A stretch of DNA of 64,000 nucleotides from Hyperoplus lanceolatus (taxonomy: Eukaryota > Chordata > Actinopteri > Uranoscopiformes > Ammodytidae). Positions 47,653-51,670 of this stretch are shown one piece after another (the first letter of the stretch is position 1; every line of letters begins with the position of its first letter). Made by a program: the position numbers and the translations under genes. The stretch covers positions 18,224,501-18,288,500 of the forward strand of contig CM049408.1 in NCBI GenBank assembly GCA_026929865.2, given 5' to 3'. The notes beneath the pieces were generated by a model that saw only the letters and a list, made by a program, of their open reading frames with translations, had not been told where the DNA came from and did no database searches.

Positions 47653-47720
47653 CACTTCCGCCTGCCCTGCCGAACCCATTATAAAACCAGCATCACCCAT
47701 GTGGTATTTCTTTTCACACA
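47653..47720 (+). promoter_or_regulatory. promoter of the rpl13a-like locus (Ets-like site, TATA box, 5'TOP start)
   Basis: An ACTTCCG Ets-like word at 47654-47660, TATAAAA at 47680-47686, and a pyrimidine tract TTTCTTTTC at 47707-47715, about 27 bp further on. This is the layout of ribosomal-protein gene starts. Its survival is notable because the frame downstream is broken. Confidence 0.55.
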
Positions 47721-47730
47721 TCATGGGATC

Positions 47731-47751
47731 ATGGCGGATCGACTTAATAAG
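47731..47751 (+). pseudogene. rpl13a: rpl13a-like exon 1, coding part
   Basis: ATG at 47731, MADRLNK as in fish RPL13A, with donor AAG/GTGGGT. Confidence 0.8.
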
Positions 47752-48241
47752 GTGGGTAGCTCTGCGGACTTGTGCTACATTTTTGTGCTTCTTATTAGCA
47801 CTTTATGAACTTAATTTTGATATAATGTTAAAGACCGTGGCTGAGTGGACATGCCTTCATCATGCCAGCGAGTCGGGGCTGTGAGCATGTTAGCTTTAAC
47901 TAGTGTCATGCTTACGTGCAAGTCTAGGAACCGTACCATCAAATTAACACATTTTATAGATGCCCCGTCATGCCCGTATTAAAACTTAAACTAAACTTGT
48001 GTTTAATGCATATCCACGTAATGACTGATGAATTAACGTGTTAGCATGCTTTGACCTAAATGCAAAGCTCAAGTTGTGTCTTAAACCAGCAAGTTATCAG
48101 TGTCCATGTGCTAGTTCTAACAAGGTCCGTGGTGGCACTGAATGTGATGCACCGTCTATCTGGCTAACGTTGCAATGCAAGTTGAGCTAATTATTTTTAT
48201 GTCAACGATATAACCAGTTTCCCCTTCTTTCAAACCTGCAG

Positions 48242-48314
48242 GTTTTGCTGCTTGATGTCAGGGCCCATCTACTGGGCCGGCTTGCTGCCCTTGTGGCTAA
48301 TCGTGTCATGCTGG
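48242..48314 (+). pseudogene. rpl13a: rpl13a-like exon 2
   Basis: Encodes [20 protein letters not shown] and RVMLG. The family reads [20 protein letters not shown], so substitutions have accumulated. The frame is open. Confidence 0.88.
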
Positions 48315-48416
48315 GTAAATTCTTAAATTACAAATTGGTGTCGTGACTGAAATGTGGCTGCACTATATTCAAAATATCAAACTACACATTAGTTACACCA
48401 CTACTACAATACCTGT

Positions 48417-48496
48417 CTGTCATTGATGATCATTTATCTACCTTGTTTAAGTTTAACGACCATGAGAAAACTCACATGCACTACCATCTGAGACAA
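48417..48496 (+). ncRNA. SNORD33-like box C/D snoRNA, copy 1
   Basis: C box TGATGA at 48424-48429 and D box CTGA at 48488-48491. The guide CACATGCACTACCAT before box D is the same as in human SNORD33 (U33), and ACGACCATGAGA matches its middle. U33 directs 2'-O-methylation of 18S rRNA and lives in RPL13A introns. It lies in intron 2 of the rpl13a-like locus. GTC/GAC can pair at the ends. Confidence 0.85.
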
Positions 48497-48566
48497 GAAT
48501 TGGATGATCATTAAAATGACTGTTGATTCCATTATCAAATTTTAATGTATTTTACTTATCTTTTAG

Positions 48567-48622
48567 GACACAAAGTAGTGGTGGTGAGATGGGTGTTTCC
48601 TGCAAGTTCTACCATAACAAGC
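48567..48622 (+). pseudogene. rpl13a: rpl13a-like exon 3 (shortened)
   Basis: GHKVVVVR, then loss of the frame. FYHNK reappears in another frame before the donor. It has 56 bp, where about 66 are expected. Confidence 0.88.
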
Positions 48623-48656
48623 GTAAGTAGTGTCAATCTGTAACTTTTTTAAATGC

Positions 48657-48735
48657 TTGTCAGTGATGATTTACCCAATGTAATTCGAGTTTAAATGACC
48701 ATGAGACTACTTACATGCACTACCATCTGAGACAA
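48657..48735 (+). ncRNA. SNORD33-like box C/D snoRNA, copy 2
   Basis: C box TGATGA at 48664-48669 and D box CTGA at 48727-48730. The guide ACATGCACTACCAT is the same as in copy 1, while the 5' half differs. It lies in intron 3. A terminal stem GTC/GAC is possible. SNORD32A has a related layout, but the ACTACCAT guide favours U33. Confidence 0.83.
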
Positions 48736-48815
48736 AGCATTACATACCGAATGTAATGTTTACAACTGCTTAATGTTGAAGTATTCCTAACTCTGTTCAA
48801 TGTCTGTCTCTACAG

Positions 48816-48917
48816 TGAAGTACCTGGCTTTCCTGCATAAGAGGATGAACACCAACCCCTCTCGTGGACCGTTCCACTTCAGAGCTCCCAGCAGAATCTT
48901 CTGGAGGACCGTCAGAG
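48816..48917 (+). pseudogene. rpl13a: rpl13a-like exon 4
   Basis: [20 protein letters not shown] followed by [15 protein letters not shown]. The best-preserved exon, full length. Confidence 0.93.
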
Positions 48918-49332
48918 GTGAGAATGTGGCACCACTGCAGGGAGACTCCTTCACCAGAACATTAAATTATTTCCATTCTGATTATAAATTTGATCACTAT
49001 GCAATATAGTAAGAATCTTAATTTGAACAATGGACACATTTAATGCTTTAGGAATGTATATGCATTCTAAATGTACTTGAGACTTACTACTATAGATTGA
49101 CGTCAAGCATAATTTGCTGAGCTCGGTCAAGTGCACTAAATGTTCTTCAGTGTAGGCTCCATTTACATATTTCTGATTAATTTAGACATGCAACATTTAG
49201 CAATGGTTTGCCTAAATTATGACTGGGGGGCTTTACTGGTCTACTTTAGCCCTCTAAACTGAATCATGGGAAGGTTTCAAATATTTAGTGTTTAATTGAA
49301 ATATACACGAGTACTGAGTCATTGAGGGTTTA

Positions 49333-50394
49333 TTAACCCTTTAGGCGCTGGGTTTTATTTAAAAAAATACTAGATTGTCTCTATCTCAAACCACTTTCAA
49401 TTCAGAGCCTTCTGAAATTTAGGTGACAAAGTGTAAATGTTCCCATCTAATTAGCATTTTATGACGTCATATGGCGGTGGTCATGTTGGATTATGTAATT
49501 TCCATGAAATACCTGATATTTTGAAAGAGTTGAACCTATTTCATCAGCTTCACCCCCTCCATCCATTTGTAATGATGTCCACTTTGTTGTAAGCCAATAG
49601 TTGTGAACTAGAACTACACCACAAAACTCATGTAAACAGTAGGCGTTTATGATTATTTTTTTTACCCACCACCATTTTTGTTTCCTTTTTTCTTCTATTC
49701 TTCATTATGATTATATAATGCTGCGTCGCATGGCTGCACCACTGCTGCGCATGGACGCAACGTGACCGGGGCCGTAGAAAGAGTAAACACTAACTCCCTA
49801 CTCGTCAACCTTTTGCGTGCCATATCTCTAAATAACTCCTAAATCCAGCAATACCACTTCAGCATAAAAAGGCTTTGTGGCACACTATCTCCGATTTCGC
49901 ACCAAACAGCGCGATTCATTTGCAGCCTGGACGCGGAGGTGTGTCTCCTCTCTGCCCTGACAGCAGGCTGGGACTCGCTCCGAGGGGCTACTCCGAGACT
50001 GACCGCCTGCGAGTGCTTTGAGACGGGGTAGGGTCTCGCGGCAGCACCCGCTGCTCGTTGAGCACAGTAACTGCAGAGTGATACGTGCTTTCACGTCAGT
50101 CTCCAAATACCACAAAAGTTTTCAATAACAACAGTAAAAATCGCTCGGAGGATATGACAAAAAAAGTAAAGTTTGGATGGGATTGTTTTTTATTTTTTAT
50201 GGGATTTCCGGATTTCCTGAAATATTTTGCATTGAAGCATGACGTTTTTCTGAGCTAAGGTCTAGGTACGGGATGTCTGCCTACTAGTGGAGGGGAGTTT
50301 GAACAAAATATAACACTCTATTTAGAGAAAACAGCTGTTAAATTCAGTACAGCGTCATGTCGCAATTTTGCGACTTTTGTGCCTAAAGGGTTAA
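49333..50394. mobile_element. TTAACCC-ended (piggyBac-like) element in intron 4
   Basis: Starts TTAACCCTTTAGGCGC and ends GTGCCTAAAGGGTTAA, with TTAA at both borders and CCC after it, as in piggyBac termini. 1062 bp, no transposase frame. It sits in the largest intron of the rpl13a-like locus, between exons 4 and 5. Confidence 0.82.
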
Positions 50395-50457
50395 GATTTG
50401 ACGTCTTCTATAATTTGGGGTTTTTGTTCATGTAATCCAGCACAAGATGTTCCTTGC

Positions 50458-50538
50458 CTGACTATGATGAGCACTTTATCCCGAAACTGATCATCTATTG
50501 ATGAGACAAACTTTATCGGATCTGATTGCTGAGTTGCG
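50458..50538 (+). ncRNA. box C/D snoRNA-like sequence, unassigned, copy 1
   Basis: All four boxes are visible: C TGATGA (50465-50470), D' CTGA (50487-50490), C' TGATGA (50499-50504), D CTGA (50529-50532). The guide candidates are ACTTTATCCCGAA before D' and CGGATCTGATTG before D. It lies in intron 4, close to exon 5. I cannot match the guides to SNORD32, 34 or 35 from memory. Confidence 0.65.
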
Positions 50539-50640
50539 CAGGGACAAAAATGTGTGCTCGGACAAACTAACTTCTCATATAGCTGCAATGGTTGCCATTT
50601 GAAGATTTATTAAAACTTTTAAATAATTCTCTGCTAACAG

Positions 50641-50716
50641 GAATGCTGCCCCACAACCAAGAGGCCAGGCTGCTCTGGACAGGCTGAAGGTGTGATGGTA
50701 TCCCCCCACTGACAAG
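50641..50716 (+). pseudogene. rpl13a: rpl13a-like exon 5 (shortened)
   Basis: Begins GMLPH. Several one- to three-base losses follow, in the HKTKRGQAALDRLKVFDG and PPPYDK parts. It has 76 bp, where about 86 are expected. Confidence 0.88.
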
Positions 50717-50934
50717 GTGAGATCTAAATTATGTCAACAAAGTGCCACATACCTTTATTCTGTTTGGCTTGTACACATGGCTTTAACTCTGCTGTCAATG
50801 ATGTCAATTACTACCCTTAACTACCTTGTTTGAGTCTTGACTCTGAAAATAAATAATATCTGAGACATGCGGTCCTATCAATGTTTAGATGTGCTGTTTT
50901 CTTTTTTATCTGATTTTTGTATTTTATTCCACAG

Positions 50935-50994
50935 AGGAAGCGCATGGTTGTTCCAGCTGCTCTTAAGGCTGTGCGTCTGAAGCCCACACGCAAG
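50935..50994 (+). pseudogene. rpl13a: rpl13a-like exon 6
   Basis: RKRMVVPAALKAVRLKPTRK, open and full length, between TTCCACAG and GTGAGC. Confidence 0.93.
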
Positions 50995-51135
50995 GTGAGC
51001 CTCCAGCTTTTGAGAGAAATGTATGGCCCACATATTTGAGTGACTTGCATTGTAGAGCTAACTTTGCTGTAAGATTTGCTAACATGGATAAACACAAATC
51101 CAAATGCTTACATTTTCCTTCCACAACTGTCCCTA

Positions 51136-51216
51136 CTTGACAAGGATGAAAAACTTTATCCCGAATCTGATCATTCATTGATGAGTCAAACTTTCGGATC
51201 TGATTACTGAGTTGAG
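51136..51216 (+). ncRNA. box C/D snoRNA-like sequence, unassigned, copy 2
   Basis: Same layout as the 50458 copy: C GGATGA (51144-51149, one change), D' CTGA (51167-51170), C' TGATGA (51179-51184), D CTGA (51207-51210). ACTTTATCCCGAA and CGGATCTGATT are shared with copy 1, while spacers differ. It lies in intron 6. Confidence 0.65.
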
Positions 51217-51447
51217 TGGGATGAGTTGTGCCTCCCAAGTTTAAGCTTTAAACAAACTCAAATGTGTTGACTACAATTTCAGAGAACATTCAAAAATAAG
51301 ATGTGTGAATCACTTTTAAATGTTAAATATATGCTGATGCCAATTGAGAGATTTTAGCCAGTGTTGCTGTACAAATCTAGGCACATGGTCCAGACTGCCA
51401 GTGATGAACTGTGGAATATACTGATCTTAATTTTCTTTCCCACAAAG

Positions 51448-51670
51448 TTTGCACTCCTTGGTCGGCTGGAAGTACCAGGCTATCACAGCCACCCTGGAGG
51501 AGAAGAGGAAGGAGAAGGCCAAGCTCCACTAAGGCAATAAAAAGTCTACAAGCTGATTTAGCTGGCAGAACGTTGAGGCCAAGATGGCAAAATACAGATG
51601 TTCTCAAACAATATGGAGTCCTTGTCTGATCTGTTTGCCTCTGACCAATAAAGATAATATTTATAGAAAG
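51448..51670 (+). pseudogene. rpl13a: rpl13a-like exon 7 and 3' UTR
   Basis: Starts FALLGRL. The AHEVGW codons are missing, [18 protein letters not shown] follows in a shifted frame, and LKQYGVLV with a stop stands at 51604-51629. An AATAAA polyA signal is at 51647-51652. Confidence 0.88.
51647..51652 (+). terminator. polyadenylation signal of the rpl13a-like locus
   Basis: AATAAA, 18 bases after the ancestral stop codon. Confidence 0.75.

What the first reader, a model, noticed from the sequence alone, without database searches (positions are those of the whole stretch)
47653..51670. An rpl13a duplicate that lost its protein but kept promoter, splice sites and snoRNAs
All seven exons, every GT-AG border, a TATA box with 5'TOP start and a polyA signal remain, while exons 3, 5 and 7 carry frame-breaking losses. 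Four box C/D snoRNA-like sequences sit in the introns. A ribosomal-protein duplicate turned into a noncoding snoRNA host would be maintained for its introns rather than its exons.
Basis: partly seen in the sequence, partly recalled or inferred. Interest (0 to 1): 0.85.

Follow-up and report, generated by a model that had tools for sequence, protein, structure and literature searches.

The report
Broken ribosomal-protein gene carrying five snoRNAs
A fish copy of the ribosomal-protein gene rpl13a can no longer make its protein but still has its promoter, splice sites and five small guide-RNA genes in its introns, so it may be a coding gene caught turning into a non-coding host for guide RNAs.

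Summary
Window 47,680-51,665 is an unprocessed rpl13a-type gene: TATA box, TOP-like start, seven exons, six GT-AG introns, poly(A) signal. The frame is destroyed in exons 3, 5 and 7; a 50-codon frame ends at the exon 3/4 joint. Of 155 compared codons identical in zebrafish and human, 17 are changed, so this is real decay, not a sequencing slip.

New here: in the held 807-Mb assembly, searches found rpl13a exons and SNORD33/32, SNORD50 and SNORD34 matches only at this locus, while 5 of 5 other ribosomal-protein genes were found. An intact rpl13a is presumably unassembled; 'duplicate' is inferred.

Best reading: a GAS5-like, TOP-driven, non-coding snoRNA host. Expression and selection are not shown; decay is too slight for intact splice sites to prove selection. 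The locus sits in a MYO6-IMPG1 block whose paired copy lies near SYNCRIP, the human neighbour of the SNORD50 host SNHG5, which may be an older case of the same conversion.

The parts
47680..47686 (+). TATA box (TATAAAA)
   Evidence: sequence
47707..47718 (+). TOP-like pyrimidine tract at the presumed start of transcription
   Evidence: sequence; start inferred
47709..47751 (+). exon 1 (start approximate); ATG at 47731; an out-of-frame ATG lies 8 nt upstream of it
48242..48314 (+). exon 2; frame open, 6 of 22 invariant codons changed
48416..48497 (+). SNORD33/32-type box C/D snoRNA in intron 2
   Evidence: RF00133, 72.9 bits; box D end 75 nt from the 3' splice site; outer stem no better than shuffled flanks
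48567..48622 (+). exon 3, net loss of 10 nt; the frame then runs into TGA at the exon 4 border
48656..48736 (+). SNORD33/32-type box C/D snoRNA in intron 3
   Evidence: RF00133, 72.3 bits; boxes and stem
48816..48917 (+). exon 4, no indel, 2 of 34 invariant codons changed
49337..50390 (.). piggyBac-like insert in intron 4 between two TTAA sites, 10-nt inverted ends CCCTTTAGGC (class name recalled)
50459..50535 (+). SNORD50-type snoRNA in intron 4
   Evidence: RF00278, 47.8 bits
50641..50716 (+). exon 5, net loss of 10 nt, no changed codon among 23 compared
50791..50870 (+). SNORD34-like snoRNA in intron 5 (below gathering score)
   Evidence: RF00147, 33.7 bits
50935..50994 (+). exon 6, no indel
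51138..51213 (+). second SNORD50-type snoRNA in intron 6 (just below gathering score; box C AGGATGA)
   Evidence: RF00278, 40.8 bits
51448..51665 (+). exon 7 (end approximate), net loss of 28 nt and one in-frame stop
51647..51652 (+). poly(A) signal AATAAA

Best explanation
An unprocessed rpl13a-type gene that lost its protein and now, most likely, works as a non-coding snoRNA host. Proposed working: polymerase II starts at the TATA/TOP promoter; the seven exons are spliced; each debranched intron 2-6 is trimmed to a box C/D snoRNA; the spliced RNA carries a 50-codon frame with a stop ahead of three exon joints and should be removed by nonsense-mediated decay, as reported for GAS5 and UHG. The two SNORD33/32 copies would guide 2'-O-methylation of one 18S rRNA uridine. 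Shown: promoter motifs, exon and intron structure, loss of frame, five snoRNAs with boxes, two fitting 18S guides. Inferred: transcription, splicing, decay of the spliced RNA, snoRNA release, and any selective upkeep.
For: All six introns GT-AG and promoter/poly(A) signals present. Five snoRNAs, one per intron 2-6. Box D is CTGA in 5 of 5, box C is at most one letter off in 5 of 5, and 4 of 5 outer stems beat at least 95% of shuffled flanks; four SNORD35 genes in the same genome's rps11 look alike (3 of 4 stems by the same measure). Box D lies 71-85 nt from the 3' splice site in introns 2, 3 and 5. Both SNORD33/32 guides pair over 13 positions, counting G-U, with an 18S stretch taken from a flatfish primer in PMC2275743. 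Whole-genome searches matched SNORD33/32, SNORD50 and SNORD34 only here. Zebrafish snoRNA hosts use TOP starts, and GAS5 and UHG RNAs are sensitive to nonsense-mediated decay (passages of PMC6954239).
Against: No transcript or small-RNA data. Two of five snoRNAs are below Rfam's gathering score; the intron 6 copy has an altered box C and lies 237 nt from the 3' splice site, the intron 4 copy 108 nt; the intron 2 stem is no better than 17% of shuffles. No sign that snoRNAs are better kept than exons 1, 2, 4 and 6. An unassembled intact rpl13a may carry its own set and make these redundant. The genome searches scored only 59 of 106722, 63 of 78541 and 68 of 123643 first-look candidates.
Confidence: 0.55

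Rival explanations
1. A plain decaying unprocessed pseudogene. Promoter, splice sites and snoRNAs are still there because too little time has passed; an intact rpl13a elsewhere supplies protein and snoRNAs.
For: Only 17 of 155 invariant codons are changed, so survival of 24 splice letters is expected often (P 0.66 for indels). Exons 1, 2, 4 and 6 are as free of indels as the snoRNAs. Two snoRNAs are sub-threshold. A 1-kb mobile-element insert sits in intron 4.
Against: No second copy of these snoRNA families was found in the assembly; four of five stems and five of five D boxes look sound.
Confidence: 0.33
2. The sole, working rpl13a gene, wrongly written in the assembly.
For: It is the only rpl13a found; uL13 is essential (recalled); exon 5 has gaps but no changed codon among 23.
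Against: Seventeen invariant codons are changed, 6 of 22 in exon 2 alone, which indel errors do not make. The losses are of 1-17 nt at about 10 places. Five other ribosomal-protein genes are found as runs of exon matches.
Confidence: 0.05
3. The spliced RNA itself has a role, for example a short peptide of 50 residues or a competitor of rpl13a mRNA, and the snoRNAs are bystanders.
For: An open frame with a kept start and 50 codons.
Against: The frame's exon 2 part departs from uL13 at 6 of 22 invariant codons, and the stop position marks the RNA for decay.
Confidence: 0.03

Closest known systems
GAS5 / UHG (SNHG1) class of non-coding snoRNA host genes
   Same: TOP-like start, several introns with one box C/D snoRNA each, no long reading frame, stop codon ahead of exon joints
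   Different: Exons here are still plainly those of a ribosomal-protein gene; expression not tested
SNHG5 (U50HG), human host of SNORD50A/B at 6q14.3-q15
   Same: Non-coding, two SNORD50 copies; position: the fish locus is about 40 kb from IMPG1 beside MYO6, and the paired fish region has SYNCRIP about 260 kb from MYO6, SYNCRIP and SNHG5 both lying at 6q14.3 in human (passage of PMC8394887)
   Different: The fish gene also has SNORD33/32 and SNORD34 and rpl13a exons; SYNCRIP is on C20, not on the C14 copy, and on the far side of MYO6; human SNHG5 was not compared by sequence
Vertebrate RPL13A, protein-coding host of SNORD32A/33/34/35A
   Same: Exon structure, SNORD33 pair and SNORD34 (a human cluster of two SNORD33 and one SNORD34 within RPL13A is stated in PMC4378963)
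   Different: Frame broken; SNORD50 in introns 4 and 6; no SNORD35 hit in the gene
RPL13a-like2 of Senegalese sole (AB360598), an expressed 'probably a pseudogene'
   Same: Transcribed rpl13a relic in a fish; its forward primer matches exon 5 at 23 of 25
   Different: Its reverse primer matches only a 9-nt stretch here, so identity of locus is not shown; no snoRNAs were discussed in the passages seen

Membership tests
Non-coding snoRNA host gene (GAS5/SNHG class) | snoRNAs inside introns, one per intron | tested here: met
   five in introns 2-6
Non-coding snoRNA host gene (GAS5/SNHG class) | TOP-type start of transcription | tested here: inconclusive
   motif and TATA box present; start not mapped
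Non-coding snoRNA host gene (GAS5/SNHG class) | no long reading frame | tested here: met
   50 codons
Non-coding snoRNA host gene (GAS5/SNHG class) | spliced, expressed, snoRNAs released | not testable with these tools
   no RNA data
Non-coding snoRNA host gene (GAS5/SNHG class) | snoRNAs conserved more than exons | tested here: inconclusive
   rates from one sequence only
Rfam RF00133 SNORD33/32 | gathering score 44 | tested here: met
   72.9 and 72.3 bits, 2 of 2
Rfam RF00278 SNORD50 | gathering score 42 | tested here: inconclusive
   47.8 met, 40.8 not met
Rfam RF00147 SNORD34 | gathering score 38 | tested here: not met
   33.7 bits, E 0.0012; called SNORD34-like only
Working rpl13a (uL13) gene | open frame of about 205 codons | tested here: not met
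Unprocessed (not retro) pseudogene | introns and promoter retained | tested here: met
SNHG5 orthologue | same chromosomal block | tested here: inconclusive
   MYO6-IMPG1 beside it, SYNCRIP near the paired block on C20
SNHG5 orthologue | exon or promoter similarity | not tested
   no human SNHG5 sequence was fetched

The most novel reading that the evidence does not exclude
This locus and human SNHG5 descend from one ancestral gene: an rpl13a copy with SNORD50 in its introns, in the SYNCRIP-MYO6-IMPG1 block. Mammals lost its protein long ago (SNHG5); in this fish the same loss is recent and the exons are still readable. The well-known 'origin unknown' non-coding host would then be a fossil ribosomal-protein gene, and the fish rpl13a of this block would be a hidden paralogue of mammalian RPL13A.
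Probability: 0.15. Interest if true: 0.8.

Novelty: new variant of a known kind. Interest (0 to 1): 0.6.

Why it matters
Where non-coding snoRNA hosts such as GAS5 and SNHG5 come from is poorly known. A host whose exons are still recognisably rpl13a would show the coding-to-non-coding step in progress and make it testable by comparing nearby species: do snoRNAs outlive the exons? If the broken gene is the only source of SNORD33/32 and SNORD50 in this fish, its loss would cost rRNA methylation although it encodes no protein. It also warns that an assembly can hold only the broken copy of an essential gene.

Tried and rejected
Pfam PF00572 in the own genome matched C7 only, taken as the mitochondrial L13 gene (inferred; no uL13 match there). 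Looked for an intact rpl13a beside rps11, its mammalian neighbour (recalled): none, and no N, in 30 kb of C16; a 19-nt exact match to exon 7 there (E 3.6e-4) was taken as chance. Looked upstream of the IMPG1 copy on C20: no rpl13a and no N in the one 5-kb piece I could get, which does not exclude a gap elsewhere. A C6 match to exon 4 (52% over 25 residues, E 1.04) was taken as chance. Sole RPL13a-like2 as the same locus: not shown. Literature: ten searches gave no listing of an rpl13a-derived non-coding snoRNA host or of an rpl13a origin of SNHG5; the library is open-access only, and no search asked directly for the origin of SNHG5. PMC5577775 (lncRNAs from coding genes) has no occurrence of snoRNA, host, ribosomal protein or gas5.
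Full report
What is there. Window 47,680-51,665 (+) reads as a complete unprocessed rpl13a-type gene with six GT-AG introns, a TATA box, a TOP-like tract about 30 nt further on, and a poly(A) signal. Exons 2 to 7 match uL13 piece by piece; the frame starting at 47731 has 50 codons and stops with TGA at the exon 3/4 joint, followed by three more introns. A frameshift-aware alignment to zebrafish uL13 (sequence) gives net losses of 10, 10 and 28 nt in exons 3, 5 and 7, about 10 events (10 merged, 12 unmerged), and one in-frame stop.

Is the damage real? Yes. Of 155 compared codons identical in zebrafish and (recalled) human, 17 are changed: 6 of 22 in exon 2, 4 of 16 in exon 3, 2 of 34 in exon 4, 0 of 23 in exon 5, 0 of 18 in exon 6 and 5 of 42 in exon 7. 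Some of the exon 3 and 7 changes lie beside gaps and depend on the alignment. Indel errors would not give the exon 2 changes.

snoRNAs. cmscan gives one box C/D snoRNA in each of introns 2-6: SNORD33/32 (72.9 and 72.3 bits), SNORD50 (47.8 and 40.8) and SNORD34-like (33.7); the last two values are below gathering scores. Box D is perfect in 5 of 5; box C has no mismatch in introns 3 and 4 and one in introns 2, 5 and 6. The intron 5 form, ATGATGT, is also that of 4 of 4 SNORD35 genes in this genome's rps11, so it is no sign of decay. Outer stems: -5.8 (intron 2, as low as 17% of shuffles), -11.5, -11.7 (4.7%), -10.2 (1.7%) and -14.3 kcal/mol; rps11 controls -7.9 (9%) to -11.4. Box D to 3' splice site: 75, 85, 108, 71, 237 nt. 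Both SNORD33/32 guides pair over 13 positions, G-U counted, with an 18S stretch read from a flatfish primer (PMC2275743 Table 3), the fifth letter before box D facing a U; in human this would be 18S-Um1326 (recalled).

Where else in the genome? The window is C14:18,224,501-18,288,500 of an unnamed 807-Mb assembly. uL13 searches matched only this locus, apart from a chance-level C6 match to exon 4 (E 1.04). The spliced exons as DNA matched only this locus (7 of 7 matches). SNORD33/32, SNORD50 and SNORD34 models matched only here: 2, 2 and 1 matches, with only the best 59-68 of some 80,000-120,000 first-look candidates scored. So the broken gene is, as far as these searches see, the only rpl13a and the only source of three snoRNA families in the assembly. 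As uL13 is essential (recalled), an intact gene is presumably missing from the assembly. There is precedent: RPL13A and its snoRNAs are missing together from many bird assemblies (passage of PMC4378963, where the authors read it as loss).

Is it kept for its introns? Not shown. With one indel per 57 nt of former coding sequence, the chance of no indel is 0.66 for splice dinucleotides, 0.38 for C and D boxes, 0.055 for boxes plus inner stems plus guides, and 0.001 for whole snoRNAs, but indels inside snoRNA loops cannot be recognised from one sequence (two of the hits lack 3 and 5 model positions). Exons 1, 2, 4 and 6 give 0.011 on the same test.

Surroundings. Left of the window lies MYO6 (identified), inside it an IMPG1-like gene (SEA domain just under cut-off; name recalled), about 40 kb from the broken gene. 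The pair recurs on C20, as expected for the teleost genome duplication (inference), and SYNCRIP lies about 260 kb from MYO6 there. In human, SYNCRIP and SNHG5, the host of SNORD50A/B, are both at 6q14.3 (passage of PMC8394887), and U50HG is mapped to 6q15 in a title in PMC2653536's reference list. I predicted SYNCRIP to be in the block before searching; it was found beside the C20 copy and not on C14, and on the far side of MYO6 from where rpl13a stands. This keeps open that SNHG5 is an older fossil of the same gene; it is not shown.

Related reports. Tilapia has RPL13A as the only ribosomal-protein gene on LG19 (passages of PMC7072992). Senegalese sole expresses an RPL13a-like2, 'probably a pseudogene' (PMC2275743, sections 5, 11 and 12 read); its primers do not show it to be this locus.

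Verdict. Observation confirmed with corrections (five snoRNAs; no partner found). Best reading: a non-coding, TOP-type snoRNA host in the making, 0.55; plain decaying pseudogene 0.33.

Noticed in passing
49337-50390: piggyBac-like element without other copies in the 264 kb examined, inserted in intron 4 between TTAA sites.
   Followed up: partly
whole own genome (G000): No intact rpl13a found in the assembly although 5 of 5 other ribosomal-protein genes were.
   Followed up: partly
C14:18334699-18334893 (outside the window, + strand): Uninterrupted RPL39 reading frame, Pfam 77.5 bits; looks like a retrocopy (inference).
   Followed up: no
L038 5792-7695: Four SNORD35 copies in the rps11 locus on C16, a lineage expansion of this snoRNA.
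   Followed up: no
29714-30803: Tc1/mariner-like element with inverted TTAACCCTCTTGGGCATG ends and a Tc3-type transposase piece.
   Followed up: no
36862-43159: Pieces of L1-like retrotransposons on both strands (endonuclease passes Pfam's cut-off; reverse transcriptase and RNA-binding pieces fall below it).
   Followed up: no
58710-62504: Minus-strand LTR-type element with reverse transcriptase, RNase H and integrase domains; described only.
   Followed up: no
52340-53460: The motif CACAAATCACCCC recurs several times in both orientations; seen by eye.
   Followed up: no
47723-47725: An ATG 8 nt before the rpl13a start, out of frame, opening a 37-codon frame in the spliced sequence.
   Followed up: no
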